From the IMG/VR virus record IMGVR_UViG_3300034355_001150, positions 25,767-89,766 of that record: a stretch of DNA of 64,000 bases, one strand, 5' to 3'. Each line of letters begins with the position of its first letter. Position 1 is the stretch's first letter. Position numbers and translations under genes: made by a program. Below are positions 12,651-60,790 of the stretch, piece after piece. This DNA comes from a virus. The notes beneath the pieces were generated by a model, which searched no databases, had not been told where the DNA came from, and saw only the letters and a list, made by a program, of their open reading frames with translations.

Positions 12651-13378
12651 CAATAACGATTGAATCCGGAATAACAATAGCACCAGGTATTGCCATAGGA
12701 GATATACCTGTCTTTTCAAGCGGGGGTGGATTGACTCACACTGTCACTCCTGTCGGACAGGCTCAGGTATCAACCGCCCAAGCCAAGTTTGGAACAGGCT
12801 CATATACATCCAACAACTTGAGTGGTTACTTGCGTGTAAATCCTTTTTCGGATTTTGCTTGGGGCACCGGTAATTTTACTATGGAGTTTTGGTACAGACC
12901 AGTGGCATTCTCAACAGCATCCACGCTGATTGGGTTGAGGCCAGCATCAAACGAAGGCGCATATCCGGTCATTTTTATCAATACTAACTCCTCAGTCGGC
13001 TATTATGTAAGCGCAGTAACTCGGATAACTTCTGCGACCACTGTGATTACGGCGAACACTTGGAACTCTATTGCTGTTGTTCGTTCCGCTGGCAACACTA
13101 GGATGTACATCAATGGAAACCAAAGTGGCAGTACGTTCGTAGATTCTTTCAACTATCAAGCGGGCAACTGTATCATAGCAGGAAATGATTTTACGCTCGG
13201 ATCTGCTCCTATACTCGGCAACATGGATGAAATCAGATTGAGCAACATTGCCAGATATACTGCCAACTATACACCAGCTACCTCTGCTTTCACGACAGAT
13301 AATTACACTAAATTATTGATTCACTGCGATGGAACCAATGGCAGTAATGTTTTTGTTGATATGAGCAGTGCTATATGA
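12647..13378 (+). CDS. LamG-like lectin protein, tandem copy 2
   Basis: A 243-aa paralogue of the gene before it, sharing the N-terminal IESGITIAPGIAIGDIPVF motif and the core GTGNFTMEFWYRP ... WNSIAVVRSAGNTRMYINGN ... DEIRLSNIARYTANYTP. Differences concentrate in the loops between conserved strands, where a jelly-roll lectin would bind its ligand. It overlaps both neighbours by four bases, giving a tight three-gene unit. Assignment is by fold-like motif and paralogy. Confidence 0.7.
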   Translation: MTITIESGITIAPGIAIGDIPVFSSGGGLTHTVTPVGQAQVSTAQAKFGTGSYTSNNLSGYLRVNPFSDFAWGTGNFTMEFWYRPVAFSTASTLIGLRPASNEGAYPVIFINTNSSVGYYVSAVTRITSATTVITANTWNSIAVVRSAGNTRMYINGNQSGSTFVDSFNYQAGNCIIAGNDFTLGSAPILGNMDEIRLSNIARYTANYTPATSAFTTDNYTKLLIHCDGTNGSNVFVDMSSAI

Positions 13379-15127: not shown

Positions 15128-16240
15128 CTAAATTTGTGGCGGCCAATTCTTTTTACGGTTACCAGCAATCTCCCCAGTTAACCATCTGGGATCATCTTTG
15201 GTTGTCCTAAACATATTACCTTGCAAATCCTTCACAACCATAGTATCTTTGGCGTGTCCAACCATTTCTCCTGAAATCCATCTTGGATCATCTGCGTTGA
15301 TGTGGTGAATGACGCCATGTTCATCTCTTGCTTTTATGGTACCATTGGTGGTACTAACTAACTCACCCGATAGCCGTCGTGGATCATCTATTGCTATATG
15401 GTGGACTTTGCCGTTCTGATCTTTAGCAGGCATCATGCCTTTAGTGGTGCCGAATAGTTCTCCTGATAACCATTCAGGGTCATCTTTGCCGACGACACGA
15501 ACCCTTCCGTTTTTATCTCTTGTCGCCACTTTTCCAGTCGAGATACTAACCAATTCACCCGACAAACGCCGAGGATCATCCATACTGATACGATAAATGT
15601 TTCCGTCTTTATCTTTAGCTGGCATCATACCTTTATTGATTCCGACTAATTCACCCGACAAACGCCGAGGATCATCCATATTGATATGATAAATGTTTCC
15701 ATCTTTATCTTTAGCTGGCATCATTCCTTTAAAAATATGCATAATATTACCAGTCTGTATTCTCGGGTCATCTATTGATACTCGCATTAAGTTTCCGTCT
15801 TTATCTTTAGCTGGCATCATACCTTTATTGATTCCGACTAATTCACCCGACAAACGACGTGGATCATCAAGTGATACAAAATAGACAAACCCATCTTTAT
15901 CACACACAGATACCTTTCCAGTAACATAACACTTGTAACAATCAGATTTATTTAACCACTTATCATCGGCAACCACTTTAAGTCGACGCAAAACTTTATG
16001 CTCCCACAGTACTGCGTCATCTGGCGTAGAGAAGCCTTGGCGTCTGATCTGAATGATATCAGGATCACCGTGTTGTTCTCGGAACTTGGCTACATACTTG
16101 CTCGACGTCTGGTATTTAACCCAGAATAAGCCGGGATCGGCATCTTTTCCATACTTGCTTCCATAATACCAAACATTTAGCCAGGACCAGCCGATCAGGT
16201 AGGTATAGTAAATAGGTGTTTTTAATTTTTTGGTTGCCAT
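15128..16240 (-). CDS. GIY-YIG-like homing endonuclease with eight 32-aa repeats
   Basis: A 370-aa protein preceded by a good ribosome site (AAGGAG). Residues about 10-100 resemble the GIY-YIG-like endonucleases of large phages: YYTYLIG, then WYYGSKY, SSKYV, and LWEHKVLRRL with Glu80 as the likely metal-binding acid. From residue 109 to 364 there are eight perfect-length tandem 32-aa repeats with consensus KDKDGNxxxxxxDDPRRLSGELVGxxKG. A single related unit occurs in the HNH endonuclease at 57.6-58.6 kb, so the repeats are probably DNA-binding modules of the NUMOD type. It is the only minus-strand gene inside the plus-strand fibre region, consistent with insertion of a selfish gene. Nuclease activity is inferred. 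Confidence 0.65.
   Translation of the reverse strand: MATKKLKTPIYYTYLIGWSWLNVWYYGSKYGKDADPGLFWVKYQTSSKYVAKFREQHGDPDIIQIRRQGFSTPDDAVLWEHKVLRRLKVVADDKWLNKSDCYKCYVTGKVSVCDKDGFVYFVSLDDPRRLSGELVGINKGMMPAKDKDGNLMRVSIDDPRIQTGNIMHIFKGMMPAKDKDGNIYHINMDDPRRLSGELVGINKGMMPAKDKDGNIYRISMDDPRRLSGELVSISTGKVATRDKNGRVRVVGKDDPEWLSGELFGTTKGMMPAKDQNGKVHHIAIDDPRRLSGELVSTTNGTIKARDEHGVIHHINADDPRWISGEMVGHAKDTMVVKDLQGNMFRTTKDDPRWLTGEIAGNRKKNWPPQI
15149..15916 (-). repeat. Eight tandem 96-bp repeats inside the endonuclease gene
   Basis: The DNA repeats with exact 96-bp phase; strings such as ATCTTTAGCTGGCATCAT recur nearly unchanged in several units. They encode the 32-aa modules of the GIY-YIG-like protein. The high DNA similarity between units suggests recent expansion. 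Confidence 0.85.
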
Positions 16241-42937: not shown

Positions 42938-42965
42938 ATTATACAGTAAAATTTTAGATTGTCAA
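42938..42965 (-). promoter_or_regulatory. Sigma70-like promoter
   Basis: TTGACA, 16 bp, TATAAT on the minus strand, overlapping the end of methyltransferase copy 1 and driving the two small genes. AATTAGTGTGATTAT at its edge recurs at 45.96 kb. Confidence 0.85.
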
Positions 42966-43870
42966 CAACTGCTCTCAATTAGCTCAATTTCTTCTTTGGT
43001 CAGATTAAAATGATTGTACAATTGCTGATTGGACCAGCTTCTTGTCAAGTCAAGTTTAGGAAAAACATTCAAGTTTTTCGTTTCATTATATTGAGTATGG
43101 CGATATACGCGAGAAAAAAATTTATACAGATTGCTATTAAACACTGTTTTTGCGTGTTCAACACTTTCTTCTTCTTTCAAGAGCATTGTTTGGCACCATC
43201 CTACACCATAATGTCCATCATCAATGATTACTTTTGTGGGTCCATTGTAGGGAATAACCACTTTCTTTTTTGATTTTAACGGTGATTCAATTTCACTCCA
43301 TCTTACAGGAATTCCAGAATCGTTTAAGTAATCCTTGCTAGAATTAACATGATGTATGTTTGCGTGTATGGCGTTCGCCGTTTTATTATCGGTATGATAG
43401 CCTGTTCCTTTATATTGATGATTTATGCCAGCTAAGAAAAAATTACAACGTGGTTCGGACGATTCTGTTAGCTTTTTTATAATAGTCAGCCCTTTGTTTG
43501 TAATTAGCTTGGTTTTCCTTAAATCAACTACATGAACACCATCATTGCAATTTATCTCAGATTTACCTTGATATTGATTTTTTTGTACAATAGTGTAGCC
43601 AAACGTAGAGGAAACATTAAAGTAATTTTTAATTCTATCCGATATGTCAGCGTATATCAGATTGTATTCTGAAAACACTCTCTCAATGATTTTTCCATTA
43701 TCGCTCGGAGAACACCAACCAGTTGGCGTAATTAAGCAAGTATATCCATTTTCTGCTGTGATGTCAACCGATAGCGTTAAAAACTCTTTCCACAGAGATT
43801 TGTTAGTTTGTCTTCCGTTTTTGGCGAGTTGTTTGAATGGTGGATTACCTACCACTATGTCAAATTTCAT
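42962..43870 (-). CDS. N6-adenine methyltransferase paralogue 1, short form lacking SAM domain
   Basis: A 302-aa protein beginning MKFDIVVGNPPF; NPPF is catalytic motif IV of N6-adenine (gamma-type) DNA methyltransferases. The SAM-binding motif I, which in the long copies precedes it by about 70 residues, is absent, so the protein is either a partner subunit or a store of sequence. The middle (about 60-260) differs from all other copies and should hold the target-recognition part. The C-terminus SWSNQQLYNHFNLTKEEIEL is shared with copy 5. ATG 43870 is preferred over the TTG one codon earlier. It lies 12 bases after copy 2. Confidence 0.75.
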   Translation of the reverse strand: MKFDIVVGNPPFKQLAKNGRQTNKSLWKEFLTLSVDITAENGYTCLITPTGWCSPSDNGKIIERVFSEYNLIYADISDRIKNYFNVSSTFGYTIVQKNQYQGKSEINCNDGVHVVDLRKTKLITNKGLTIIKKLTESSEPRCNFFLAGINHQYKGTGYHTDNKTANAIHANIHHVNSSKDYLNDSGIPVRWSEIESPLKSKKKVVIPYNGPTKVIIDDGHYGVGWCQTMLLKEEESVEHAKTVFNSNLYKFFSRVYRHTQYNETKNLNVFPKLDLTRSWSNQQLYNHFNLTKEEIELIESSC

Positions 43871-43882
43871 CAACCAATATTC

Positions 43883-44980
43883 TCAATAGTAATTTGGCAT
43901 AGCGTTTATTACGTCGCGCTCTTCTTGTGTGAATCCATAGAAGTCTTGTATTGAATCTTCAGTCCAAATTCTATCCAATGGCGGTAGTGGTACATTTTCA
44001 AAATATCGCTTAATAAACAAATGCTGTGATACCTTGTATATCACCAAGCCATATCTAGCCACCTTTGTTTTCAAATAAGATTTTAAGCTATCTTTTTCTT
44101 CGTCTGTGTTAATGACCAAACATTTAGCGCCATCTTTCAAGACATCAATTTTACTGTTCCTGTAGAAAAAAGTAAAATAATCATCAGTATTAAAATGTCC
44201 ACATATTTGAGGTAACGCAATAAATGGTCGGTTGGGTCGATCTGAAGATATATCATTCAAACACTTTTCTTTCGTTAATTCTTTGTATCTATTTACGAGA
44301 CTCAAAACAACGTCACTTGGTTCCCAAAACCCCGTAGGCAAATCAGAAATGTCTTTTATATAATATTTATTATCTGATTCTTTGTAATGCAATTTAATGT
44401 TATCTTGGTTGTTCTTTATAGCATATGTTACGCATAGATAGCAACTGAATAGGCCCTTTCCAAATAACTCGTTGCCATCCATAAATGTTAATTGTTTAAG
44501 TCTTCCCTTTAGCTCTCTTCTGACTTCTTTTTCTATAGAAGAATTGCCTCGATATGTCCACCCCGATGGGTGAATCAAGCAAACAATATCAGCTATCTGC
44601 AAACATTTCAATAAAAAATCTAAGTGGGTATTTTTTAAATAAGGTGGATTGCCCACCACTATGTCAAATTTCATATCTGTTTCCCATGTCAAAAAGTCGG
44701 CTCTGATTACGTTCTTGAATCGGCCATGCAACATCATGCGATTAGTTGCCCATATTGCCTTATCAAGAACGTATATGCGATTATTTATGTAGTCATTGTC
44801 AAAGCCTAATTTTCGCATTCTTCTTACAATCACTTTTGACTCGGTTCCATAGCCACAGGCAACATTCAGTATCTTAATATCTGGATTTAAAAATACCTCG
44901 TCGGGTATTTGGTCAATGATTTCTGTCCACAATTCAATACTATCTGGATCACCTAAAAAGCAATTGCCGCCGTATCCCAT
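43883..44980 (-). CDS. N6-adenine DNA methyltransferase paralogue 2, long form
   Basis: A 365-aa protein. The N-terminal 114 residues carry KILNVACGYGTE (motif I, SAM binding, about 37-47), the VLDKAIWATN acidic strand, and DMKFDIVVGNPPY (motif IV at 111-114), and are nearly identical in DNA to copy 5. After NPPY the sequence diverges completely (LKNTHLDFLLKCLQIADIVC), giving a different putative target-recognition region, then a C-terminal IWTEDSIQDFYGFTQEERDV segment. Expected product: N6-methyladenine in phage DNA at a specific site. It is preceded by an AGGAATTTTA leader. Confidence 0.85.
   Translation of the reverse strand: MGYGGNCFLGDPDSIELWTEIIDQIPDEVFLNPDIKILNVACGYGTESKVIVRRMRKLGFDNDYINNRIYVLDKAIWATNRMMLHGRFKNVIRADFLTWETDMKFDIVVGNPPYLKNTHLDFLLKCLQIADIVCLIHPSGWTYRGNSSIEKEVRRELKGRLKQLTFMDGNELFGKGLFSCYLCVTYAIKNNQDNIKLHYKESDNKYYIKDISDLPTGFWEPSDVVLSLVNRYKELTKEKCLNDISSDRPNRPFIALPQICGHFNTDDYFTFFYRNSKIDVLKDGAKCLVINTDEEKDSLKSYLKTKVARYGLVIYKVSQHLFIKRYFENVPLPPLDRIWTEDSIQDFYGFTQEERDVINAMPNYY
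44639..44980 (-). repeat. 342-bp direct repeat, copy A (shared methyltransferase N-terminal half)
   Basis: Matches 48239-48580 at an offset of exactly 3600 bp. Positions 44639-44820 are identical and the remaining 160 bp have about 18 differences. Identity stops abruptly just past the NPPY codons. Large enough for homologous recombination. Confidence 0.95.
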
Positions 44981-45048
44981 TAAAATTCCTCCATAGATTA
45001 ATTGTTGTTAATAACTGTTCTCATTTGTTTTAGGTCATGTCAAGTCTT

Positions 45049-45864
45049 TTACGAGGTTTCTTTTTTTCTAACAAGTACATCTAAGATGTATTCTTGCTCC
45101 GTGGCGGAGATATTGAACAATGAGAATAATTCTGAATCATTCATATTAATTCCGGAAATTTTTGGCATCCTTGCTAAATTTCTATAGCTCACTTGCGCTG
45201 CATTGGCAAAAGAATATACACAAAATCTACCAAGAAGTGATTTGGATAAATACCAAGAGTTAAGGTGAGCTTCCGTCTCCGAATCCATCTTTAAAAACAT
45301 ACCTCTGCCATTCTCAATTATTCCTTCGTTTGTATGATTCACTCTTGAAATAACTGACTTTTTTCCACCCTTTGGTTTTGTGTGACAAAAACGAATATAT
45401 GCAGAATCAACAAAAACATAATCTTTTGCAATCTCGTTTCGTGATAGAAACAATTTTTCTCCCGAGGAGTTAAACACTTTGTCTATTATGGATGCCCCCA
45501 CAATGTTTGTGGCCTGTATGGGTAACGCCTTTTGCATATCCCAATCAATGTGCGATTCCGAGAAGATGACTTTTGTTGTTTTTGTAACCAATCCCAAAGA
45601 CTTTGAACCAATAAAACCAGCAATGTTTGTTCCAATTCCCGGAAAACTTTCATTCAGGTTGGCAAATACTGTTGTTAATGAAAATAAATTATGTATTATT
45701 TTAGCACTTTTAGACCCCGGATCTAAAAATCTATTGGGAACAACGAATGCAATCAATCCGTCTTCTGAAAGAACTTTTCCAGACTTTTCTATAAATTTTG
45801 TATAATACGAAGAATCACCGTCTATTTTATATGGCGGATTTCCAACCACAATGTCAAATTTCAT
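45049..45864 (-). CDS. N6-adenine methyltransferase paralogue 3, N-terminally truncated
   Basis: A 271-aa reading from the ATG of MKFDIVVGNPPYK. Upstream the frame stays open to 45957 and still encodes LDRTIWATN ... NVIRADFLTWETD, the counterpart of residues 72-102 of copies 2 and 5, then meets a stop. So about 70 N-terminal residues including motif I were lost, right where the AP2-like gene ends. After NPPY it has typical Eco57I/TaqI-like features (IAFVVPNRFLDPGSKSAKII and a C-terminal SYRNLARMPKISG). Either a short form like copies 1 and 4 or a decaying gene. A TTG start at 45918 is also possible. Confidence 0.7.
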   Translation of the reverse strand: MKFDIVVGNPPYKIDGDSSYYTKFIEKSGKVLSEDGLIAFVVPNRFLDPGSKSAKIIHNLFSLTTVFANLNESFPGIGTNIAGFIGSKSLGLVTKTTKVIFSESHIDWDMQKALPIQATNIVGASIIDKVFNSSGEKLFLSRNEIAKDYVFVDSAYIRFCHTKPKGGKKSVISRVNHTNEGIIENGRGMFLKMDSETEAHLNSWYLSKSLLGRFCVYSFANAAQVSYRNLARMPKISGINMNDSELFSLFNISATEQEYILDVLVRKKETS

Positions 45865-45956
45865 ATCTGTTTCCCATGTCAAAAAGTCGGCTCTGATGAC
45901 ATTATTGAACCCACCCAAAATACGTATCCGATTGGTAGCCCAAATGGTCCTATCTA

Positions 45957-45971
45957 ATTAGTGTGATTATT
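45957..45971. repeat. 15-bp promoter fragment repeated at a truncation point
   Basis: AATTAGTGTGATTAT at the junction where copy 3 loses its N-terminus also occurs at 42930-42944 beside the promoter of the small-gene pair. It looks like a recombination scar carrying part of a promoter region. Confidence 0.5.
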
Positions 45972-46581
45972 AATCTTCTAGGTTAAATAGATTTATAAAT
46001 TCCTGTGGGGTTAGATATTCTTTTGCCCTGATAACAACGTCGTTGCCATATTTGGCAAACAACGCCTTCCCGTCATATTTTTCGTATATCTGAGGCCATA
46101 GACCTTTATTATCGTTAACCGAACGAGTGGGAAAAGCGACGCGAATCTTTAATTTACTAGAAACCGTAACGTTACCTGCATTTCTCTTAATCGACTTGAG
46201 TTTGATATCCTTCAAAATTTTTGAAGCCTCTTCTTTGTCCAATCCACTGGGTGCATTGTATAGATCGCTGGGGAAATCAACCCAGCGTCCGTTCTCATGA
46301 ATCCAATAATCAACATTGATAGGATCAATTTTAAATAGCTCTGTTACATATGCCGCCTCTCTGGCATCTGCATAATATCCGCCGTGCCAAGAAGTTCTTT
46401 CTTGTGCATATAATTGTGAACGAATAGAGGTATCTGATGGATTGGCACATGCCGCAATAAATGGTTTGGATTCATCCAATGTCCAAGCAGTGGATAATGC
46501 GGCTCCGGTGTAACCCGACCTATTTGATTTTCTGGTTGACAGATGAATTTTTATGCCGGTGGAAAGAGTAATAGTGGTCAT
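45970..46581 (-). CDS. AP2-like DNA-binding protein inserted in the methyltransferase array
   Basis: A 203-aa protein. ATG 46581 follows GGAGACAAACA and is preferred over an upstream start that overlaps the promoter. Residues about 20-85 (GYTGAALSTAWTLDESKPFI ... HGGYYADAREAAYVTELF) resemble an AP2/ERF-like domain, which in phages is usually the DNA-binding part of homing endonucleases. The C-terminal half (KIRVAFPTRSVNDNKGLWPQ) contains no HNH or GIY motif that I can see. It has its own early promoter and sits at the broken end of copy 3, suggesting it arrived as a mobile gene. Confidence 0.5.
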   Translation of the reverse strand: MTTITLSTGIKIHLSTRKSNRSGYTGAALSTAWTLDESKPFIAACANPSDTSIRSQLYAQERTSWHGGYYADAREAAYVTELFKIDPINVDYWIHENGRWVDFPSDLYNAPSGLDKEEASKILKDIKLKSIKRNAGNVTVSSKLKIRVAFPTRSVNDNKGLWPQIYEKYDGKALFAKYGNDVVIRAKEYLTPQEFINLFNLED

Positions 46582-46635
46582 TGTTTGTCTCCTCGTTAAA
46601 ATTAAGACTTGAACGAACTTCAAATCATTGGGAGT

Positions 46636-46663
46636 ATTATACAGTAAAATTTTTACTTGTCAA
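46636..46663 (-). promoter_or_regulatory. Sigma70-like promoter of the AP2-like gene
   Basis: TTGACA, 16 bp, TATAAT on the minus strand, overlapping the last codons of copy 4 and 55 bp before the AP2-like gene. Confidence 0.85.
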
Positions 46664-47477
46664 CCTTTTTTACTCTACTCTCTATGAAATTTATCTCATC
46701 ATCGGACAGCAAGAAATGCTTATAAACATCGTTATTGGTCCACATTCTATCAGAATCTAACTTTGGTAACAAATTATTATTTTTTACCACTGGAGTAAAT
46801 CCAGCTGTTTTAAGATGGTTGTCGGCATAAAAGCGATATAAATTACTGTTGGTATATGATAAAATATTATTGCCCTCCTTTATGTTCGTTATAGGAAGAA
46901 TTTTATTAAATTTACAAGTGGGCGAATCGGTTATGAATTGCGAGGAGTAACTTGCGCTGAAAGGATAGACTATTTTGAGGCCGACATTATTTGGCTTTAA
47001 ATCTGTGTTCGTTTTGTTTTTGCCGCTATAATAAATCTCACAATCCCCTATGTTTAAATTCTCTTTTGTTATTTGCGGGTTCTCGTATATCAAAGATAAA
47101 AATTCCGCGCTATCTAACATTTTAGACACAATAGAGTCAATCATTGGATCTCTTAGTATTGGAAGCATAACCTTTTTGTGCTTTGAACTTCTCGTTACTA
47201 CCCAATGACATGTATTCACTCCAACTGAAAACCATTGTTTTTCTTTGTGTACAGAAGCATGAGTTAAAGTTAGTTGATTATTCAATCTATCCTTAAACCA
47301 CTTTCCCATACCGACCGTGTAATCAAAAATAGATGCAGGTGTTACGAATGCAACAAACCCGATGTCGGTAACTAGGGTGAGTGTTTTTTTCGCGAATTTA
47401 TGCCATAATTTATTATTTTTAGCTTTATTGTTGTTGTCCTGATAAGGTGGATTGCCCACCACTATGTCAAATTTCAT
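46653..47477 (-). CDS. N6-adenine methyltransferase paralogue 4, short form lacking SAM domain
   Basis: A 274-aa protein beginning MKFDIVVGNPPYQ, with motif IV but no motif I. The body (GFVAFVTPASIFDYTVGMGK, HWVVTRSSKHKK) is a third distinct variable region and the end RMWTNNDVYKHFLLSDDEIN is the shared C-terminal helix pair. Its ATG overlaps the stop of copy 5 (ATGA), so the short form is translated together with a full enzyme. It could work as a second specificity subunit using the SAM domain of copy 5. Confidence 0.75.
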   Translation of the reverse strand: MKFDIVVGNPPYQDNNNKAKNNKLWHKFAKKTLTLVTDIGFVAFVTPASIFDYTVGMGKWFKDRLNNQLTLTHASVHKEKQWFSVGVNTCHWVVTRSSKHKKVMLPILRDPMIDSIVSKMLDSAEFLSLIYENPQITKENLNIGDCEIYYSGKNKTNTDLKPNNVGLKIVYPFSASYSSQFITDSPTCKFNKILPITNIKEGNNILSYTNSNLYRFYADNHLKTAGFTPVVKNNNLLPKLDSDRMWTNNDVYKHFLLSDDEINFIESRVKKVDK

Positions 47478-48580
47478 TGACCAATTTTCTCAATTAGCTC
47501 AATTTCTTTGTTAGTCAGATTAAAATGATTATACAATTCTACGTCGGACCACGCCATGTTGGTGTCAACCATCGGTAATGATTGCAAAATTCCGGTACTC
47601 GATTGCCCTGCCTCTCCGCCAAGTATTTTAAACACGTAGCAAAACAACTTGCTATTGAATATTGTTTTATAATTTGCAAGATTTTTTGTATCAGCTATCA
47701 CCATAGTTTGTGCAGAATGATTAGTGTCCGACGAACGACCGATAAAAAGTTTATCGTATTTTTTGAATCGTCCTCCGTTTATCTTAACCACCAAATCAGA
47801 TTCCTTCGACTTATCGCATTCTGTAAATTTCCATTTCTTGGAGGAATATGTTTTGTTCAATATACTTAGATTATCTGGAGTAACATCAAACGGAATAGGA
47901 CAGGAAGCATCTACATCGCAGTAAGTAGAATCATTATTATTTAAGATAAGACATTGTCCAACATAATTTTTGGACATAACAAATGCACTTATGCGAATAC
48001 CAACATTGAAATGATGCGAAACATCCGGGTATATTCCGATGAATTTAAAATTATTTTTATAAATAAATGTTATCTTGTTTGTTTCCTTGCCAAAATTTGA
48101 TATAGAAAAAATTGAAGTGGGAACTATCATTGCTATAGTTGTATTTTCGCTTGACAATTCAACGGCTTTTGTCAAAAAAGCCCACCAAAAGCCTCCTTGT
48201 TTATTGTTCTTGCATTTTATAGCTGCGGTCGATGCCTGATAAGGTGGATTGCCCACCACTATGTCAAATTTCATATCTGTTTCCCATGTCAAAAAGTCGG
48301 CTCTGATTACGTTCTTGAATCGGCCATGCAACATCATGCGATTAGTTGCCCATATTGCCTTATCAAGAACGTATATGCGATTATTTATGTAGTCATTGTC
48401 AAAGCCTAATTTTCGCATTCGGCGAACGATCACTTTTGACTCGGTTCCATAGCCACAGGCAACATTCAGTATCTTAATATCTGGATTTAGAAATACCTCA
48501 TCGGGTATTTTGTCAATGATTTCTGTCCACAATTCCTCGCTATCGGGATCACCCAAGAAGCAATTACCACCATATCCCAT
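47474..48580 (-). CDS. N6-adenine DNA methyltransferase paralogue 5, long form
   Basis: A 368-aa protein with motif I (KILNVACGYGTE, about 37-47) and motif IV NPPY at 111-114 in an N-terminal half nearly identical to copy 2. The variable region is different (QASTAAIKCKNNKQGGFWWA and on) and the C-terminus (MAWSDVELYNHFNLTNKEIE) is close to copy 1. The start shares a base with the stop of the helicase C-terminal ORF, placing it in one operon with the helicase. Predicted N6-adenine methylation; the target site is unknown. Confidence 0.85.
   Translation of the reverse strand: MGYGGNCFLGDPDSEELWTEIIDKIPDEVFLNPDIKILNVACGYGTESKVIVRRMRKLGFDNDYINNRIYVLDKAIWATNRMMLHGRFKNVIRADFLTWETDMKFDIVVGNPPYQASTAAIKCKNNKQGGFWWAFLTKAVELSSENTTIAMIVPTSIFSISNFGKETNKITFIYKNNFKFIGIYPDVSHHFNVGIRISAFVMSKNYVGQCLILNNNDSTYCDVDASCPIPFDVTPDNLSILNKTYSSKKWKFTECDKSKESDLVVKINGGRFKKYDKLFIGRSSDTNHSAQTMVIADTKNLANYKTIFNSKLFCYVFKILGGEAGQSSTGILQSLPMVDTNMAWSDVELYNHFNLTNKEIELIEKIGQ
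48239..48580 (-). repeat. 342-bp direct repeat, copy B
   Basis: Second copy of the repeat described at 44639-44980. A shorter 34-bp piece of it (starting at AAGGTGGATTGCCCACC) also begins copy 4 near 47443, and a diverged version begins copy 1 near 43848. Confidence 0.95.
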
Positions 48581-49935
48581 TACACATCTCCAAAACAGAA
48601 ATCATTGATTAAATTGTTGTATTTTTTAGTATTCTGGACAACCACGTCTAATATCGGCTCATTCAGAATTCCCTTATCTAAGATCATCAAAGCTATCTCA
48701 ATATCAATTCCGACAAAATCATAAAATTCTTCGGATGATTGCGCAGAGTAAATAATGTTCTCCAAACACTCTTTGTACGTTTCTCCGCTTGGATATAGAT
48801 AATGAACATTTCTCGCAGACCGATTTATCGTCTTGATGGCCTCATTTATTATCGTCTCAATATCTTTATCACTTTTGCGATTTTTCGGCCTTTTGCCATC
48901 TGTTTCAGTTACATAATTTTTAACAGCATCAATTGCATTTTTGCCTTGATGTCCTGGTCCAGCAATACGATTCGCGTTTTCAAGATGTTCAACGATGTCA
49001 CGTGCCAAATCAATATTTACAGTAACATCGGCCACCCGAAGTAGATTTTCATTATCATTCAGAATGGTGAACATTTCAGATTCAGTTACCTCAACCGCCG
49101 TTCCATACTTCACTCTAAAACAATCTATGCTTGATAAAACAAAGCGAGTCGCGGTTGGAAAATCCATCCCTTCGCTTTTATGAACCTGCATGATCTCTTC
49201 TACTAATAGCTTTTCTATATTTTCAGAACGATTTGGGTCAAAGCTAAGATCAACAATGTGTCCATACTCTTTTGATTCACCAGAGAATGTGTTACCCGGT
49301 GTCAAACAACGACTTACTTTTTGAATAGTAGTATCTACCGATCCTCTATCATAAGCAATAACTGATGCTTGAATTTCAGATATACTGTATGATCGTGAAC
49401 CCATCTGATTTGATATTATAATCAAACCATCCTTGCCAGCGATTTTTGCCTCGTTTATTTCCCGAATCGTTTCTGATTCTGCTTCTTTGTTGCTGGTAAA
49501 ATCACCGTTTAATATTTTGATATGATAATTAGGGATAGCCCTGATAGCGATATCTTTAATCTGCCGCATTTCCTTGTTGTTGGCACTCACCAACAACATA
49601 AAGCAATCAACAGATTCGCCGGTCAAATTGCTCAAGTTCAATTCTTGTCGTAGAGGTTCTTCTCCGATAAAACTCTTGAATAATTTTGTGATAAACGATT
49701 TATTTCCATTGGGTTTTCCCCATATTTTTGCCCAAGAAGGCTGAACTTCTGGCTCAAGCGATTCTATATCATGCTTGAGTGTATCTACTTCCAACATGAA
49801 GAATTTTCGTTTTATAATACTTTCTTCGGATTGCTCTAATTGACTATAAGCGGTATAAATAACCCCATCAACTTTTGGCGCACCTTTGGCCAATCTCTGG
49901 ATGTTGGTTCCAGAGGCATATATTTTTATTAGCAT
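48580..49935 (-). CDS. SF2 helicase, C-terminal half of a split gene
   Basis: A 451-aa protein starting MLIKIYASGTNIQRL. SGT at 8-10 is a helicase motif III, IISNQMGSRSYSI (173-185) is motif V-like and DTTIQKVSRCLTPG (201-214) is motif VI. It therefore contains the second RecA-like lobe plus a helical tail. It lies in the same reading frame as the ORF upstream, separated by a 27-bp stretch with three stops, so the two once formed, or together form, one helicase. The ribosome site before this ATG is poor. Confidence 0.75.
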   Translation of the reverse strand: MLIKIYASGTNIQRLAKGAPKVDGVIYTAYSQLEQSEESIIKRKFFMLEVDTLKHDIESLEPEVQPSWAKIWGKPNGNKSFITKLFKSFIGEEPLRQELNLSNLTGESVDCFMLLVSANNKEMRQIKDIAIRAIPNYHIKILNGDFTSNKEAESETIREINEAKIAGKDGLIIISNQMGSRSYSISEIQASVIAYDRGSVDTTIQKVSRCLTPGNTFSGESKEYGHIVDLSFDPNRSENIEKLLVEEIMQVHKSEGMDFPTATRFVLSSIDCFRVKYGTAVEVTESEMFTILNDNENLLRVADVTVNIDLARDIVEHLENANRIAGPGHQGKNAIDAVKNYVTETDGKRPKNRKSDKDIETIINEAIKTINRSARNVHYLYPSGETYKECLENIIYSAQSSEEFYDFVGIDIEIALMILDKGILNEPILDVVVQNTKKYNNLINDFCFGDV

Positions 49936-49959
49936 AGTTCATTTTGGTGTTTATTGATT

Positions 49960-50784
49960 TCATGAAAACAAAAAATCTACTTTTTTAATTTGATTGTCGG
50001 TATGAGTGCCGAAATCTCCCTCGTCGGCGAAAACAAATATATCGTCATTTTTCAAATCTGATATCCATTGATGTTTTTCGCACCATTCATCATAATCTCC
50101 GTGAAGTGAGATAGGAACAACTACTCGTTGACCATTAGATAAAGCATTTTCAACTTTGAATGAGGCATCGTCGTCATTGCAATCAATCAATGCAATGTCC
50201 AAAAAATCATCATAGTCCGATAATGCATTTATGAATGATGAATGCACACTGAGCCAATACGCTGGCAACAGCATAATTCTATTGTTGTATCTTTCGCAAA
50301 CAGCATTAAATAGCATCAGTGACCATATTGTTTTGCCAAATCTCGGGCATAAATTTGCGGCAATCGTTGGCGAATGATCGGTTTTATCTATTATTTCTAA
50401 TGCGTCATTTAATGCTTTTTGTTGTAAGTCACGAAGTACAACCTTGTTTCTTACTCGTTTTCCCTCCATGGATTCAACCAAGTCATCAATGTAACGATGA
50501 GCGTCATCAATAGAGGTACCGGGAATTTTAAACCATTCGGTTCCTGCACCATCTTTGTGGTGCAATCCTTTCCTGGTCAATACTTTATGAACTTCGTAAT
50601 CACGCTTGATATTCTGAAGATTATTCCATGAGCCTACTCGGATTTTTGCTTCATACTCTGATGCACCTCCCTGTTCTGCTATTCTAACGTCAACATCACG
50701 AATACTATCGCCCACTTTGGCCAAAATAAACCCATCATACTTGCATAATGCCGAAGGATAAGTGTACGCATATAAATTGATCAT
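49960..50784 (-). CDS. GIY-YIG/T5orf172-like domain fused to SF2 helicase N-terminal lobe
   Basis: A 274-aa protein. ATG 50784 follows GGGGAGAG and starts five bases after the methylase stop; an earlier start would overlap. Residues about 5-100 (FILAKVGDSIRDVDVRIAEQ ... EVHKVLTRKGLHHKDG ... TEWFKI) match the T5orf172 type of GIY-YIG-like domain that is often fused to helicases and restriction enzymes. Then come the Walker A PRFGKT (147-152) and Walker B/DEAD-like box FADEGDFG (252-259). It ends at VDFLFS, just before motif III, which is in the next ORF. Together with the methyltransferases it looks like restriction-modification-type machinery. Confidence 0.75.
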   Translation of the reverse strand: MINLYAYTYPSALCKYDGFILAKVGDSIRDVDVRIAEQGGASEYEAKIRVGSWNNLQNIKRDYEVHKVLTRKGLHHKDGAGTEWFKIPGTSIDDAHRYIDDLVESMEGKRVRNKVVLRDLQQKALNDALEIIDKTDHSPTIAANLCPRFGKTIWSLMLFNAVCERYNNRIMLLPAYWLSVHSSFINALSDYDDFLDIALIDCNDDDASFKVENALSNGQRVVVPISLHGDYDEWCEKHQWISDLKNDDIFVFADEGDFGTHTDNQIKKVDFLFS

Positions 50785-50789
50785 GCTGC

Positions 50790-51266
50790 TCACTCTCCCC
50801 AATTATCAAATAGCGTGTGTTTATGTAATTCATCATCGTTAAAGTTTGTTCCATTGAACTCATATCCATAGGTTAAACCATCATGGCATACTATGTTCTT
50901 CTCAACAATGTGAGAATATTCTGATTTACCACATAATAAACGCTCTCTGCACAGAGTAACATTATCTTGCATAATATCAACGCCAAAAACTGTACTCAGG
51001 GCTTGTTTAAACCCATGACCGTTCTCTAGCTTACGAATAAGAACTTCGCTTAAAAATTGCCCATCGCCGCAACTTGGATCAAGAAATGTTTTAGTTGGAT
51101 CCGTAAATGAATCTTTTGGTAATAGGTCCAATATCTCTTGCACCAATGGCGTGGGTGTGAAGCACTCCCCTGTGCTTTTTATGCGGGACATTTCTCGAAC
51201 AGTCCCGGACATGAATTCTCTATCGCGCATATGCGATATAGCTGATTGTAATTCTTCTTTCGTCAT
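50790..51266 (-). CDS. Small N6-methylase-like protein (SAM-binding module)
   Basis: A 158-aa protein. GECFTPTPLVQEIL is the motif X region and TFLDPSCGDGQFLSEVLI is motif I of the HsdM/N-6 adenine methylase family, with VFGVDIMQDNV as the acidic strand. It stops before any NPPY motif, so it is only the SAM-binding half. This is complementary to the short methyltransferase copies, which have NPPY but no motif I. First gene of the operon; the promoter is unclear (TTGAGG, 15 bp, TATAAT). Confidence 0.75.
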   Translation of the reverse strand: MTKEELQSAISHMRDREFMSGTVREMSRIKSTGECFTPTPLVQEILDLLPKDSFTDPTKTFLDPSCGDGQFLSEVLIRKLENGHGFKQALSTVFGVDIMQDNVTLCRERLLCGKSEYSHIVEKNIVCHDGLTYGYEFNGTNFNDDELHKHTLFDNWGE

Positions 51267-55883: not shown

Positions 55884-56696
55884 TTATTCTCCGTTAAAAA
55901 TTATTTTTGTCAATAAGTCTATGCCATCTATGGCATTCATTTGCATAGATATATCTTGTTTGCGTGATATATCCGGTTCATATAGGTTTATCCTAATCAA
56001 TTTGCTGGTTCTTTCTGCACCAAACCATCTAATAGATGGGATAGTTTTACCAGCCCCTATCTCAATTCCGACAATGTTTTTCTTATCAGATTCCCATTCG
56101 GTATATGATCTTTGTTGTTCGTCCACCCGATTGAAACAAAAAGCAGGATCATTGAACATCATTACTTTTGGTCTCAAATAGCTACCGCAATTTGGGCAGG
56201 TTGGTATATCTTTTTCGCTGGTCAGTACATCAGTAAAATTCGGCATAGGCCAATCTTCGCGTGTGCATTGATCAACACATTGAATATATCGCAAATTACC
56301 GTGAATTTCAAGCAATTTGTTTGAATCATATCCAGCCTTTAAAAAGTGACCATCAACATTGGATGTTACCGAGAATATATCCTTTCCTAATTCTTTAAGC
56401 CTCAGTAATTGTACATATCCCTTATGAGGAGTTAATGACATTCCGGTTATCAATCTGGTAATATAAAAGTTCCATGCTTCCAAAGGATGAATGGCAAATG
56501 CGTCGGCTGTAGCAAATTTCATGAAATTACTTTGCTCACTTGTCCATATTCCATCTTTTCCCCTAAAGTCCGGTATTCCAGAATCAACGCTCATACCCGC
56601 CCCAGATAGAATAACAATCCCATCTGCTTCATCAATCATCTTTTTGATTTGATTATCCAGCACAGCTTTCGCATTCTCCTTTACTAGCTTGAACAC
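55884..56696 (-). CDS. Sir2-family NAD-dependent protein deacylase (sirtuin)
   Basis: A 270-aa reading. Family motifs: VILSGAGMSVDSGIPDFRG (NAD binding), SNVDGHF (113-118 area), catalytic His132 in LLEIHGNL, Zn cysteines Cys140/Cys144 and Cys167/Cys170, and IEIGAGKTIPSIR in place of the usual GTSLxVxPA. Sirtuins remove acyl groups from lysines while consuming NAD. The GTG start at 56696 overlaps the RNR gene by 44 bases; a GTG at 56663 (after AAGGAG) or ATG at 56639 are alternatives that keep the motifs. It is co-transcribed with nrdA. In a phage it may act on host proteins or NAD metabolism. Confidence 0.88.
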   Translation of the reverse strand: MFKLVKENAKAVLDNQIKKMIDEADGIVILSGAGMSVDSGIPDFRGKDGIWTSEQSNFMKFATADAFAIHPLEAWNFYITRLITGMSLTPHKGYVQLLRLKELGKDIFSVTSNVDGHFLKAGYDSNKLLEIHGNLRYIQCVDQCTREDWPMPNFTDVLTSEKDIPTCPNCGSYLRPKVMMFNDPAFCFNRVDEQQRSYTEWESDKKNIVGIEIGAGKTIPSIRWFGAERTSKLIRINLYEPDISRKQDISMQMNAIDGIDLLTKIIFNGE

Positions 56697-57648
56697 CCGA
56701 TTCTGATCTAATATAATACAATGATTTAATCAACGGATCATTAAATGCCATCTGATGAACTTCTGAGATATATTCTTCTGATTCATCTGACGAGAAAAAT
56801 AGATTGATGGATTGCGCTTGGTCTATAAATTGCTGTCTTACTGAAGCTAATCTTATAATGACCTTTTGATCAATTTCAAATGCCGTTTTAAATACTTTTT
56901 TCTCTTCTTCGTTTAACCATTCAACATCTTGCACCGAGCCATTATGATTGATTACTTCGTTGATGTGCTTATCATCATAAATTCCTTTTTCCTTCAACAG
57001 TTCCAAAAATACCGGATTGATTCTGTTCATTTCTCCAGCAGCAGAACCTTGTACGTAGACATTTTTATAAACGGGTTCAATTCCCTGTGATACGCCTCCC
57101 ATAATTCCGGCTGTTGATAGCGTTGGTGCAACAGCCAATAGATGAGAATTTCTACGATTATATCCTCTGCACCATTCTGGTTCGCCAAATGCTTCTGCCA
57201 TCCATCGTGTTGCCTTTTCTGATTCTTCTTTAATTTTTTTGAAGATTTCTGCATTCTTAAAGTGAGCTTCTATTGATTCAAACGGAATCATATTTAATTG
57301 CAAATAGGTATGAAATCCCATTACGCCAAGTCCTAATGCTCTTGACTTTTCCGTGAACCTGACTGCTTTTTCTAAACCTTTTATTTTTTTACCAATAGAA
57401 ATAAACTCAGATGCGACACAGTCTAAGAATACAGAAGAAACAAAAATAGTATCGGTATCTTTCCATTCATCATACTTAGCTAAATTCAACGAAGATAATA
57501 CGCATGTATAGGTATGTTCATCATCGGAGAACAACGTGATCTCTGTGCAATTATGAACCAAAATGTCGTTTCCGAAGAAGTTATTATTGTCTTCTACTGT
57601 TATATCATAAACATCTTCTAGATAGTCAACCTCTTCAATTAATAGCAT
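56653..57648 (-). CDS. nrdA: Class I ribonucleotide reductase large subunit, C-terminal part with C-intein
   Basis: A 331-aa protein. Residues 1-33 are the C-terminal half of a split intein (block F VYDITVEDNNNFFGNDI, block G LVHN), followed by Cys34, the +1 residue, and the C-extein CTEITLFSDDEHTYTC. NLC-TEI is the RNR segment carrying the thiyl-radical cysteine, so the intein splice residue is the catalytic Cys itself. The rest includes the barrel strands and a C-terminal GECESCAG with the redox Cys pair. AAGAGG stands six bases before ATG. After trans-splicing with the N-part the enzyme would be about 564 aa, shorter than T4 or E. coli NrdA, which have an extra N-terminal ATP cone. Confidence 0.92.
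   Translation of the reverse strand: MLLIEEVDYLEDVYDITVEDNNNFFGNDILVHNCTEITLFSDDEHTYTCVLSSLNLAKYDEWKDTDTIFVSSVFLDCVASEFISIGKKIKGLEKAVRFTEKSRALGLGVMGFHTYLQLNMIPFESIEAHFKNAEIFKKIKEESEKATRWMAEAFGEPEWCRGYNRRNSHLLAVAPTLSTAGIMGGVSQGIEPVYKNVYVQGSAAGEMNRINPVFLELLKEKGIYDDKHINEVINHNGSVQDVEWLNEEEKKVFKTAFEIDQKVIIRLASVRQQFIDQAQSINLFFSSDESEEYISEVHQMAFNDPLIKSLYYIRSESGVQASKGECESCAG
57550..57648 (-). other. Split-intein C-half (33 aa)
   Basis: Encodes LEDVYDITVEDNNNFFGNDI and LVHN; His32-Asn33 are the splice-junction pair, and Cys34 begins the extein. The length is typical of natural C-inteins. Confidence 0.9.
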
Positions 57649-58612
57649 CTAATACCTCTTTAACATTAATTTTGTTTCTCATTTTGTTATACCTATTGTA
57701 TTCTAAATTTAACTCTTTACAAACCGGCGAAATCAAATTGTTTTTAACATCACCATTAAACCTAAACCCACTTTTAGCACCGCCGCCGAGATTTGGAAAT
57801 TTTCTAAATTTGTGTTTTTCATCCCAAATCAACTTAATCAATTTTAATCCTGGCAATTCATTAAATTGGTATTTTTCGGCAATCACAGACGCAACCTTTA
57901 CGTAAAAATCATAGATTTCATCATCGGTTATTCCGCTGTATTTTGGGTTATTTGTTCCGGTTGTCTGATCATCTTTATTTGAAGCAGATACCCAATCTTC
58001 AATATTGTCCAAATCGTTCTTATTGCAATATCTTCCTTCTCCGGTTTTTTTATTATAAAATTTGTGTTTATTCTTTGAATGATGAACCCATTCACCCGAA
58101 ACGACTTTTGGGTGATTTTTTTCAACTGATCCAACTATTTCTCCGGTTAATACATCTTTTACTGGAAAAGTTCCTTTTCTTGATATTGATATTCTGTGTT
58201 TTCCTTCTTTTGTTTGCCACCCGTTAGTTTTACGAAAACTCGAAGAATTTTGCCTCATCCATGCATAAGAATTTCGTATTTTTCTATTTAAACAGGTTTT
58301 AATATTTTTCAATTTCTTTTTGCTGTTAAACCCGTTTATAACAAACTTAATAGCAATAAAATCACATCGTTCACCATAAGCTTTATATCTTATTAAATGC
58401 GCAAACAAATGTTCTTCTGGCAAAAGCGTAACTATATTATCTATGTTATTTGAACCCCCAACACTTTTTGGAATTATATGATGCCCCTCGACATATAATT
58501 CTAAATTATTTACTATTCGTAAATCTTTGGGGTTTCGTTTCCTTAACCGAGCAAAAGGGGTTGTTCTTTGACAATAATTGATAAATGTTTCATATAATTT
58601 AATATAATTCAT
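57635..58612 (-). CDS. HNH homing endonuclease between the split-intein halves
   Basis: A 325-aa protein. The HNH core is ELYVEGHHIIPKSVGGSNNI with TLLPEEHLFAHLI (His/Asn/His). A NUMOD-like DNA-binding unit follows (FPVKDVLTGEIVG ... HPKVVSGEWVHHSKN), matching the 32-aa repeats of the endonuclease at 15-16 kb, and a C-terminal basic region. It is a free-standing gene exactly between the two parts of nrdA and overlaps the C-part start by 14 bases. It should cut intein-less nrdA alleles and spread the fractured-gene arrangement. Its leader contains a hairpin with an internal late promoter. Confidence 0.85.
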   Translation of the reverse strand: MNYIKLYETFINYCQRTTPFARLRKRNPKDLRIVNNLELYVEGHHIIPKSVGGSNNIDNIVTLLPEEHLFAHLIRYKAYGERCDFIAIKFVINGFNSKKKLKNIKTCLNRKIRNSYAWMRQNSSSFRKTNGWQTKEGKHRISISRKGTFPVKDVLTGEIVGSVEKNHPKVVSGEWVHHSKNKHKFYNKKTGEGRYCNKNDLDNIEDWVSASNKDDQTTGTNNPKYSGITDDEIYDFYVKVASVIAEKYQFNELPGLKLIKLIWDEKHKFRKFPNLGGGAKSGFRFNGDVKNNLISPVCKELNLEYNRYNKMRNKINVKEVLDAIN

Positions 58613-58617
58613 GTTTT

Positions 58618-58651
58618 AATTCCTCTTCGTGTATTTATACGAAGAGGAATT
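58618..58651 (-). promoter_or_regulatory. Hairpin-embedded late promoter masking the HNH ribosome site
   Basis: A perfect 13-bp stem (AATTCCTCTTCGT/ACGAAGAGGAATT) with an 8-nt loop. The minus-strand TATAAATA box (58632-58639) lies in the loop. The downstream arm contains AGAGGA, the ribosome site for ATG 58612. A read-through transcript would fold and hide it; a late transcript starting near 58626 would begin at AGAGGA with the upstream arm missing and be translatable. T4 uses this arrangement for I-TevI. Confidence 0.85.
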
Positions 58652-58664
58652 TCACTACATAAAA

Positions 58665-59789
58665 CTATAAAATTTTGAGTTCATCAGAAGTTGTCAAATT
58701 GCCAGCCTCAACATAACCTCTATTTTTAGTATAGATGAGATGACAAGGAGTACAAACTAAACTTTTGCCAGAAGTTTCATCTGTAATTTTAATCAATTTC
58801 GCATCTTTTTTCGTTAAAGCAAAATCAACAATTTTTTTCCATTCAATTTTGTTTGATTCTATATTAAACGACTTCGTTAATAACGGAATGCCATTATCTA
58901 AAAATAATCCAACAAGTTTGATGGGAAGTACAAATTCTTCCGACGATTCGTCCTCAATTTTTACTTGAACCAAAGTATTTCCGGTTACACAGAGATTACT
59001 CGCCTTTACTTTTAATCCATTATCTTTGTAACATTTGGGTGTCAGCTTGTTTACCTTGTCAACAAAAAAGAAATATCCCTTTCCGGTTACCATCTTGGTT
59101 TTCATAACCTTTTGATACCTTGAAATAGCTTTTTTATCGCCTGAGTTCAATCTCCTAATGAATTTATCAGTTATAACCCACCCGATATTACAATCATCTG
59201 GGCTTGAATTGAGGAAGTTAATGATCTCCCAAAAATCTTCATGATCAATTTCAATATATCCAGCCCATGCTCCACGCCTCGTGTTGCCCTGAGATATATC
59301 TCTGGACAATTGAACAAAGTCTTTCAATACAGGAAGAACACCAGATGCCTTTCCGCCAGATGAGATTTCTGTTCCTCTATGTCTGATTGCACCAAGATAC
59401 GAGCTTGTACCAAAACCGTTCTTGGATAACATTGCTATTTCTTTTTGAGTATCATAAAAGTCATACACACAATCATTGACAAAATTACCAGAGCAGCTTA
59501 CATTACATCCTCTATCGGTTCCCATGTTGGCGAGAATCGGAGTAGCACAAGATAGCCAACCATTCCAAATAACTGTATAAAATTTATGTTCCCAATACTC
59601 TGGATCATCAGTCCATTTAGCCGCACATTTGCTAATTCTACGAGCTACTGACTTAAAGTCCTTTTCTGTTTTAGTTGCGTATTTTGAAGAGAATAATTGC
59701 CACCCAGCGGTCGTAAACCAATCAGGTAAAACGCCTTCCTCTTGGAGACGTTTGCGTTCTTCGGATAGATCTTCGTAAATTGTCTTCAT
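58665..59789 (-). CDS. nrdA: Class I ribonucleotide reductase large subunit, N-terminal part with N-intein
   Basis: A 374-aa protein. ATG 59789 overlaps the nrdB stop (ATGA), so it is preferred over a start 14 codons upstream. N-extein residues 1-266 contain SCATPILANMGTDRGCNVSC, NGFGTSSYLGAIRHRG and the QGNTRRGAWAGYI strand, ending KASNL. Residues 267-374 are the N-intein: CVTGNTLVQV (block A) and GKSLVCTPCHLIYT (block B, normally TPDH) ending DELKIL. It splices in trans with the C-part. The enzyme reduces ribonucleotides for DNA synthesis with NrdB as radical source. Confidence 0.92.
   Translation of the reverse strand: MKTIYEDLSEERKRLQEEGVLPDWFTTAGWQLFSSKYATKTEKDFKSVARRISKCAAKWTDDPEYWEHKFYTVIWNGWLSCATPILANMGTDRGCNVSCSGNFVNDCVYDFYDTQKEIAMLSKNGFGTSSYLGAIRHRGTEISSGGKASGVLPVLKDFVQLSRDISQGNTRRGAWAGYIEIDHEDFWEIINFLNSSPDDCNIGWVITDKFIRRLNSGDKKAISRYQKVMKTKMVTGKGYFFFVDKVNKLTPKCYKDNGLKVKASNLCVTGNTLVQVKIEDESSEEFVLPIKLVGLFLDNGIPLLTKSFNIESNKIEWKKIVDFALTKKDAKLIKITDETSGKSLVCTPCHLIYTKNRGYVEAGNLTTSDELKIL
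58668..58991 (-). other. Split-intein N-half (108 aa)
   Basis: Starts with Cys1 after extein SNL. Block B reads CTPCHLIYT, where the usual Asp before His is Cys. It resembles the known NrdA-type split inteins from environmental phage sequences. Confidence 0.9.
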
Positions 59790-60790
59790 GCCGCTTCCTC
59801 TACCGACCAATTGAATCCCTTCTCGTTCCAATCTCGCTTATATGAATTGCCAATTTTATAGAAAAAATCATGCAATTGAGGTGCGTTGATGTTTTTATAG
59901 AACCAAGTTTTGATTGGATTGTATTGAGGATTATAGTGTTTTTCAAATCCAAGTTGTTCTAAACAAAGATCAAGTCGATGCTGAATAAACGATTTTAGCT
60001 GATGGTCGGTAATTCCCTTGATATTGCCCTTCTCAAAAATCATATCTATAATTCTATCCTCGTGTTCTTTGATGTGTTCTACTGTTTCTAATAGGTCTGT
60101 GTTTAATTTCGTTATTTGTTCTTGTGATAATTCGCTTTCTGCCAACAGAGTTCTGAACAACCATGCTCCGGCAATAGAATGAAGATTCTCATCTCTGACG
60201 GAGAAGTTAATTCCGGCAGTAACGTTCACCAACTTGTTTTTTCCCTCTGATTGAAAATGCTTCAAGAAAGCAAATGATGAGTACAAGATAGCGCCTTCAA
60301 TCATTGAAAAAACAGCTAATGATTTCAGAATATCAATGATATTGTCAGAAGGTTTGGCGATTACCTTATTGATCCAATTTATTCTATTGAACAACACCGA
60401 ATCTTCAACATAAGAATTGTAGAATTCGTCTGTGTTCAATCCAAGAACTTCGTTTAGTTTGTTATAGAATGGTGCATGAACATTTAGCTCAAAAAAACTA
60501 AAACAGTTGCTCATTCGTTCAATATCTGGCCTGGGGAAAAGCCTTTTTATTTTTCCAGACCAATATTCTTTGCCTACTACCAATTCATATAACGTGAATA
60601 GCTTTAAGGTAGTAATTACTCCATGATACTCAGCATCAGTGAAATTGGTCTTCATATCATGAAGGTCCTTTTCCACCTCTATTTCATTGGGATGCCAAAA
60701 AATATCCATTTGTTGGTTTGCAAACTCAACCGCTTCGGGATAATCTATCGTGTATGTTGTTTTTTCTTGTAATAGTCTTGGTTTTTCCAT
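59786..60790 (-). CDS. nrdB: Class I ribonucleotide reductase small subunit
   Basis: A 334-aa protein. Probable metal ligands are Glu69 (LFTLYELVVG), Glu101 and His105 (FFELNVHAPFY), Glu165 (SMIEGAILYSSFAF) and Glu201/His204 (RDENLH), with Tyr109 four residues after His105, as for the radical tyrosine in the E. coli enzyme. The Glu-to-His spacing at the second ligand pair is four rather than the usual three. It generates the radical used by NrdA. The stop overlaps the nrdA start by four bases, so the subunits are coupled. Confidence 0.93.
   Translation of the reverse strand: MEKPRLLQEKTTYTIDYPEAVEFANQQMDIFWHPNEIEVEKDLHDMKTNFTDAEYHGVITTLKLFTLYELVVGKEYWSGKIKRLFPRPDIERMSNCFSFFELNVHAPFYNKLNEVLGLNTDEFYNSYVEDSVLFNRINWINKVIAKPSDNIIDILKSLAVFSMIEGAILYSSFAFLKHFQSEGKNKLVNVTAGINFSVRDENLHSIAGAWLFRTLLAESELSQEQITKLNTDLLETVEHIKEHEDRIIDMIFEKGNIKGITDHQLKSFIQHRLDLCLEQLGFEKHYNPQYNPIKTWFYKNINAPQLHDFFYKIGNSYKRDWNEKGFNWSVEEAA

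What the first reader, a model, noticed from the sequence alone, without database searches (positions are those of the whole stretch)
58610..58651. I-TevI-like late switch in the leader of the split-intein endonuclease
A perfect 13-bp hairpin holds the exact TATAAATA late box in its loop and the ribosome site AGAGGA in its arm. Transcripts from nrd promoters would hide the site; a late transcript would start about 14 bases before the ATG and expose it. T4 controls I-TevI translation in the same way. Its presence on an intein-associated HNH gene implies convergent control of a different class of homing element.
Basis: partly seen in the sequence, partly recalled or inferred. Interest (0 to 1): 0.72.

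Follow-up and report, generated by a model that had tools for sequence, protein, structure and literature searches.

The report
Late-switch hairpin before a homing endonuclease
A phage gene for a selfish DNA-cutting enzyme, sitting between the two halves of a split ribonucleotide reductase gene, appears to be kept silent early in infection by an RNA hairpin and switched on late by a promoter inside that hairpin, a known trick of such genes that turns out here to be widespread among their relatives.

Summary
On the minus strand 58651-58618 is a perfect 13-bp stem with an 8-base loop; the exact late box TATAAATA (58639-58632) occupies the loop; AGAGGA (58626-58621) lies in the 3' arm, 8 bases before the ATG (58612) of an HNH gene between intein-N and intein-C halves of nrdA. 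It is far beyond chance. The architecture is conserved while the arms change. Yersinia phage TG1 has the same split-intein nrdA, a 41%-identical HNH gene and a 12-bp stem around TATAAATA. In a sample taken through intein-C, without looking at leaders, 5 of 5 HNH leaders and 21 of 21 closely related GIY-YIG leaders in split nrdA have the hairpin and exact box. In split uvsX it is 5 of 9. Late-box leaders of endonuclease genes form such stems in 50 of 73, other genes in 6 of 104. The mechanism is published for I-TevI, I-TevII, I-TevIII, segB and, closest, Aeh1 mobE, an HNH gene inside nrdA whose leader I folded too. So control of an HNH gene this way is not new. The extension to split-intein cassettes, as a recurring rule, I did not find in the papers searched. 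No transcript start or translation was measured.

The parts
58639..58651 (-). 5' arm of hairpin (AATTCCTCTTCGT), removed in a late transcript
58632..58639 (-). late-promoter box TATAAATA; loop plus last base of 5' arm
   Evidence: NATAAATA enriched upstream of window ORFs
58618..58630 (-). 3' arm of hairpin (ACGAAGAGGAATT), holds the ribosome site
58626..58626 (-). predicted late transcription start, 6 bases after the box
   Evidence: inference from recalled T4 late-promoter spacing; not measured
58621..58626 (-). Shine-Dalgarno AGAGGA, 8 bases before ATG
57635..58612 (-). free-standing HNH homing endonuclease gene, 325 aa
   Evidence: Pfam PF01844 E 5.4e-5; phrog_655 homing endonuclease E 1e-22
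58665..59831 (-). nrdA N-terminal half ending in intein-N (ORF from TTG 59831; an ATG at 59788 is the likelier start)
   Evidence: Pfam Ribonuc_red_lgN and lgC; ORF
58668..58991 (-). intein-N fragment CVTGNTLVQ...DELKIL, 108 aa, after NL of the (recalled) active-site NLC
   Evidence: 40% identical to TG1 intein-N over 105 aa
57550..57648 (-). intein-C fragment MLLIEE...DILVHN at the start of the second nrdA half
   Evidence: Pfam Intein_splicing E 4.3e-8, 33.5 bits, just below its cut-off of 35.8
56653..57549 (-). nrdA C-terminal half (starts C-TEI)
   Evidence: Pfam Ribonuc_red_lgC E 1.5e-52
57655..57661 (-). own Shine-Dalgarno AAAGAGG of the intein-C/nrdA-C gene, inside the 3' end of the HNH gene, ATG 57648
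59786..60790 (-). nrdB, upstream in the same direction
   Evidence: Pfam Ribonuc_red_sm

Best explanation
A promoter-in-hairpin translation switch of a homing endonuclease gene. Transcripts that start upstream (nrdB-nrdA) contain both arms; the stem closes over the ribosome site, so HNH protein is not made while both nrdA halves are (the second half has its own ribosome site at 57661-57655). Late RNA polymerase starts inside the hairpin at about 58626, leaving out the 5' arm, so the late message is free to be translated and the endonuclease appears late. Shown here: anatomy, conservation of stem and box with covarying arms, near-specificity for endonuclease genes. Inferred: the start site, the early and late timing, the block of translation.
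For: Perfect stem, box, ribosome site and ATG in register. TG1: same split-intein nrdA, 41% identical HNH, leader with 12-bp stem round TATAAATA and AAGGAG in the 3' arm, z -5.5. Aeh1 mobE: 13-bp stem round CTCTAAATA, z -4.4. Intein-C sampling: 5 of 5 distinct HNH leaders and 21 of 21 GIY-YIG leaders in split nrdA have exact TATAAATA and a stem. Seven HNH leaders anchored on the box: predicted start to ATG 14-21 bases; 11 of 15 stem positions change on both sides. Own arms pair better than all 36 swaps in 13 of 19 leaders that I picked. GIY-YIG group with KP13-7: 3 of 17 pairs with both-sided change, 0 of 500 shuffles reach any of the five measures. Opening cost of the ribosome site, full minus late transcript: L063, a twin of the window leader, 13.5 kcal/mol; TG1 13.8. 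Late-box leaders with stems of -12 or stronger: HNH 16 of 28, GIY-YIG 34 of 45, others 6 of 104.
Against: No transcript or protein data. Aeh1 gp55 as query found no late sigma factor in the 89.8-kb record, which may be incomplete. The 14-base leader would begin with the ribosome site itself. My first statistic (gain in unpaired probability) did not separate HNH from other genes, p 0.12; the opening-energy statistic that did was chosen afterwards. In split uvsX only 5 of 9 boxed leaders have the stem. In the GIY-YIG group the 3' arm has no Shine-Dalgarno. The window's other HNH gene (15131-16240) has no such leader.
Confidence: 0.82

Rival explanations
1. The inverted repeat is mainly a DNA element: an operator where the HNH protein binds over the late promoter and represses itself, as described for I-TevI.
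For: The box lies in the centre of a DNA palindrome; I-TevI autorepression at an operator over its late promoter is described in PMC2988022 (passage).
Against: Arms differ between relatives with 41% identical proteins and keep pairing; an operator would be expected to keep sequence. In the GIY-YIG group G-U pairs replace A-U or G-C in several leaders, which keeps an RNA stem but not a DNA palindrome.
Confidence: 0.08
2. The stem is a transcription terminator or an RNA-processing site that separates nrdA-N from the endonuclease message.
For: Stable stem in an intergenic gap; an RNase E-like site is reported in Aeh1 mobE (PMC2988022, passage).
Against: No run of more than three T after the stem on either strand; nrdA-C lies downstream and would be cut off; a terminator does not explain the box in the loop or the ribosome site in the arm in the HNH leaders.
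Confidence: 0.06
3. Chance palindrome over a chance late box.
For: TATAAATA is no more frequent in the window than expected.
Against: Arms of 13 absent from 12 shuffled windows; same arrangement in TG1, Aeh1 and in 5 of 5 HNH leaders of split nrdA.
Confidence: 0.01

Closest known systems
Aeh1 mobE leader (Gibb and Edgell 2007, 2009; seen only as described in PMC2988022 and PMC3014915)
   Same: HNH gene inside nrdA; stem hides the ribosome site; late promoter at the loop; folded here from the Aeh1 record
   Different: I see no intein fragments in the translations of the Aeh1 nrdA halves; the box is CTCTAAATA; MobE matches the window protein only in a 40-residue HNH core
I-TevI, I-TevII, I-TevIII and segB switches of phage T4 (PMC2988022, section 12 read)
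   Same: Same order of late promoter, stem, ribosome site and ATG, as described there
   Different: I-Tev genes are inside group I introns; here the host gene is split by a presumed trans-splicing intein, so there is no intron folding to protect
seg43(25) hairpin of Aeromonas phage 25 (PMC2988022, section 12)
   Same: Stable stem upstream of an endonuclease gene
   Different: There the ribosome site lies outside the stem; this resembles L060 and Klebsiella phage KP13-7 more than the window
Fractured genes with split inteins and free-standing endonucleases (Dassa et al. 2009; recalled, paper not held)
   Same: nrdA split at an intein site with an endonuclease gene between the halves
   Different: Whether that paper mentions leader hairpins could not be checked

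Membership tests
Late-promoter/RBS-hairpin switch of phage homing endonucleases | Downstream gene is a homing endonuclease | tested here: met
   Pfam HNH and phrog_655
Late-promoter/RBS-hairpin switch of phage homing endonucleases | Stable stem that includes the ribosome site | tested here: met
   extra opening cost 13.5 kcal/mol in the full transcript, measured on the twin L063
Late-promoter/RBS-hairpin switch of phage homing endonucleases | Late promoter placed so that its transcript lacks the 5' arm | tested here: inconclusive
   Box present and in register; start site not measured
Late-promoter/RBS-hairpin switch of phage homing endonucleases | Gene lies on a longer message from upstream promoters | not testable with these tools
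   nrdB, nrdA-N, HNH, nrdA-C run in one direction; no RNA data
Late-promoter/RBS-hairpin switch of phage homing endonucleases | Translation rises when the stem is lost | not testable with these tools
   needs a reporter assay
Fractured gene with split intein | Host gene in two ORFs, one ending in intein-N and one starting with intein-C | tested here: met
   intein-C score 33.5 against Pfam cut-off 35.8
Fractured gene with split intein | Halves trans-splice | not testable with these tools
   needs a splicing assay
MobE orthologue | Similarity over the whole protein to Aeh1 MobE | tested here: not met
   43% over 40 residues of the HNH core only

The most novel reading that the evidence does not exclude
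The promoter-in-hairpin switch is a standing part of the split-intein endonuclease cassette itself: HNH and GIY-YIG endonucleases in split nrdA and uvsX of distant phages, a jumbo Klebsiella phage included, carry it in differing sequences, so that phages make the host enzyme early and the cutter late. A GIY-YIG branch does it without a Shine-Dalgarno in the arm, which would be a different way of blocking the ribosome.
Probability: 0.55. Interest if true: 0.62.

Novelty: new member of a known kind. Interest (0 to 1): 0.5.

Why it matters
It turns a handful of T4 and Aeh1 cases into a rule that can be tested by sequence: across the viral contigs sampled, a late box inside a stem in front of a gene is a strong sign of a homing endonuclease (50 of 73 against 6 of 104). 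It also shows that elements which need no intron folding keep the switch, so its use cannot be only to protect RNA splicing, the reason proposed for I-TevI (PMC3014915, passage). Late expression of the cutter, or keeping ribosomes off the overlapping start of the second nrdA half, become the leading reasons.

Tried and rejected
Unpaired-probability statistic on 73 leaders: no separation, p 0.12; replaced by opening energy, p 2.2e-4. First regex split of late-box genes counted several GIY-YIG genes as ordinary (15 of 121 ordinary and 41 of 56 endonuclease leaders at -12 or stronger); the regex was widened and the count repeated (6 of 104 and 50 of 73). The widened GIY set still holds a few genes that are probably not endonucleases (for example L035 first entry, L093, L101, L154), and two of the six strong ordinary ones (L060, L118) look endonuclease-like; neither was corrected. 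L106 was moved by hand from HNH to other, and L020 dropped there for lack of room. In one search I gave 52 of the 80 uvsX loci; the 28 whose match began at query residue 34 or later were left out; L024 was given a wrong start there. The MAFFT alignment of HNH leaders used wrong coordinates for L189 and was not used. The late sigma factor search with Aeh1 gp55 found nothing. Gibb and Edgell 2007 and 2009 and Dassa 2009 are not held.

Full report
What is there. The HNH gene 57635-58612 (minus) lies between an nrdA N-terminal half that ends in an intein-N fragment and an nrdA C-terminal half that starts with an intein-C fragment; nrdB is upstream in the same direction. The 52-base gap before the HNH gene holds a perfect 13-bp stem (58651-58639 with 58630-58618), loop ATAAATAC, late box TATAAATA at 58639-58632, AGAGGA at 58626-58621 and ATG at 58612. 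The minus strand folds at -23.8 kcal/mol, z -7.3. Arms of 13 or more did not occur in 12 shuffled windows. The box is not enriched over the window as a whole but NATAAATA is enriched upstream of ORFs, 8 of 64 against 1.8.

Direct relatives. A viral contig, IMGVR_UViG_3300035190_001357, carries the same leader and a 100% identical HNH protein. In Yersinia phage TG1 the HNH protein is 41% identical and lies in the same place in a split-intein nrdA. Its leader has a 12-bp stem of different sequence round TATAAATA, with AAGGAG in the 3' arm. Aeh1 mobE, the published case, has a 13-bp stem round CTCTAAATA; I see no intein in the translations of its nrdA halves.

Sampling by leader pattern. Of 103 distinct leaders, 30 with ORFs under 60 aa were dropped. 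One more was dropped for lack of room, leaving 25 HNH and 47 others. The cost of opening the ribosome site, full minus late transcript, had median 5.0 kcal/mol for HNH and 0.9 for others, 17 of 25 against 10 of 47 at 4 or more, p 2.2e-4; shuffled 5' parts reached 4 in 14% of 2500. An earlier statistic gave p 0.12. Several of the HNH genes lay between intein halves of nrdA or uvsX.

Sampling by intein, blind to leaders. Of the 80: 58 had intein-N and a gene between, 10 no intein-N found, 7 contiguous, 4 no gene between, 1 open. The 58 gave 35 distinct leaders: 5 HNH, 21 GIY-YIG of one related group, 9 other. All 5 HNH and all 21 GIY-YIG have exact TATAAATA and a stem that ends within 5 bases of, or overlaps, the ATG. 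Three of the 5 HNH leaders (L138, L141, L189) and the window twin had already been seen in the pattern scan; L145 is new. Of the 9 others, L143 and L150 have box and stem but the AAGGA lies just past the stem, L167 has a stem and no box, and 6 (L152, L154, L155, L157, L158, L161) have no exact box. In split uvsX, 52 of 80 loci were examined: 15 had a gene between, and of 9 distinct leaders with NATAAATA 5 have a stem of -11 kcal/mol or stronger and 4 do not. Klebsiella jumbo phage KP13-7 has a GIY-YIG gene (Pfam) between nrdA intein halves with a 14-bp stem round AATAAATA, z -7.7, but the stem ends 15 bases before the ATG.

Covariation. On seven HNH leaders anchored on the box (window, TG1, Aeh1, L138, L141, L145, L189), 11 of the 15 stem positions paired in two or more leaders change on both sides; the stem in each was chosen as the longest, so the control is the swap test: own arms outscore all 36 swaps in 13 of 19 leaders, and rank 2 in 3, 5 in 1, 12 in 1, 24 in 1. 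In the GIY-YIG group with KP13-7 (22 rows, 19 distinct) 95.4% of cells pair, 3 pairs change on both sides, and none of 500 shuffles reach any of the five measures; relatedness can inflate some of these.

Specificity. In the loci L013-L216 every TATAAATA 22-58 bases before an ATG with an ORF of 100 aa or more was scored by the pairing of the part before the start with the part after it; 177 distinct leaders. Strong pairing (-12 kcal/mol or better): HNH 16 of 28, GIY-YIG 34 of 45, other 6 of 104; one per protein start, 30 of 52 against 6 of 96, p 8e-12. Classes are by regular expression, widened once after the first count.

How it works. The stem covers the ribosome site in any transcript from upstream; a late transcript starts inside the hairpin and lacks the 5' arm. 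The second nrdA half has its own AAAGAGG inside the end of the HNH gene, so both enzyme halves can be made without the endonuclease. Start site, timing and block are inferred.

What is known. PMC2988022 (passages and section 12) and PMC3014915 (passages) describe this mechanism for I-TevI, I-TevII, I-TevIII, segB and Aeh1 mobE, and RBS-hiding structures for T4 e, soc and 49. I-TevIII and MobE are HNH there. A search for split intein, homing endonuclease, late promoter, hairpin and phage (at least four of the five) found no paper on the combination among the 9 listed; searches added none, judged by listings. The originals on Aeh1 and on fractured genes were not readable. I file the window feature as a new member of a known kind; the recurrence across split-intein cassettes is the new part.

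Noticed in passing
L010:4315-4377 (Klebsiella phage KP13-7): GIY-YIG gene between split-intein nrdA halves of a jumbo phage, with a 14-bp stem round AATAAATA that ends 15 bases before the ATG, so the ribosome site is outside.
   Followed up: partly
L187:1468-1526 and 20 related leaders: GIY-YIG endonuclease leaders whose stem covers the ribosome region but whose 3' arm is pyrimidine-rich; AGGAAG is in the 5' arm instead. How ribosomes start on the late message is unclear.
   Followed up: partly
L003:4700-5300: A relative of the same HNH family (39% over 87 aa) starts inside what looks like a group I intron (my reading, not tested), with no promoter hairpin seen.
   Followed up: no
window 15131-16240 (-): Second HNH gene of the window (phrog_12434); its leader has AAAGGAG but no late box or stem on the coding strand.
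   Followed up: no
window 42965-51266 (-) and L217:179-1791: A run of neighbouring proteins, most matching the same PHROGs (phrog_3689, 5172, 9133, 11371), some named DNA methyltransferase; looks like a family expanded in tandem.
   Followed up: no
window 11919-13375 (+): Two adjacent 243-aa proteins that match the same baseplate-wedge and virion-structural profiles, apparently a tandem duplication.
   Followed up: no
L217:4033-4518 (-): 162-aa ORF that matches a DNA polymerase family of 171 positions; the polymerase gene may be in pieces.
   Followed up: no
window 55884-56696 (-): Sir2-family gene directly after nrdA.
   Followed up: no
L057, L109, L127: HNH genes that split what looks like a B-family DNA polymerase gene without an intein, also with late box and partial stem.
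   Followed up: partly
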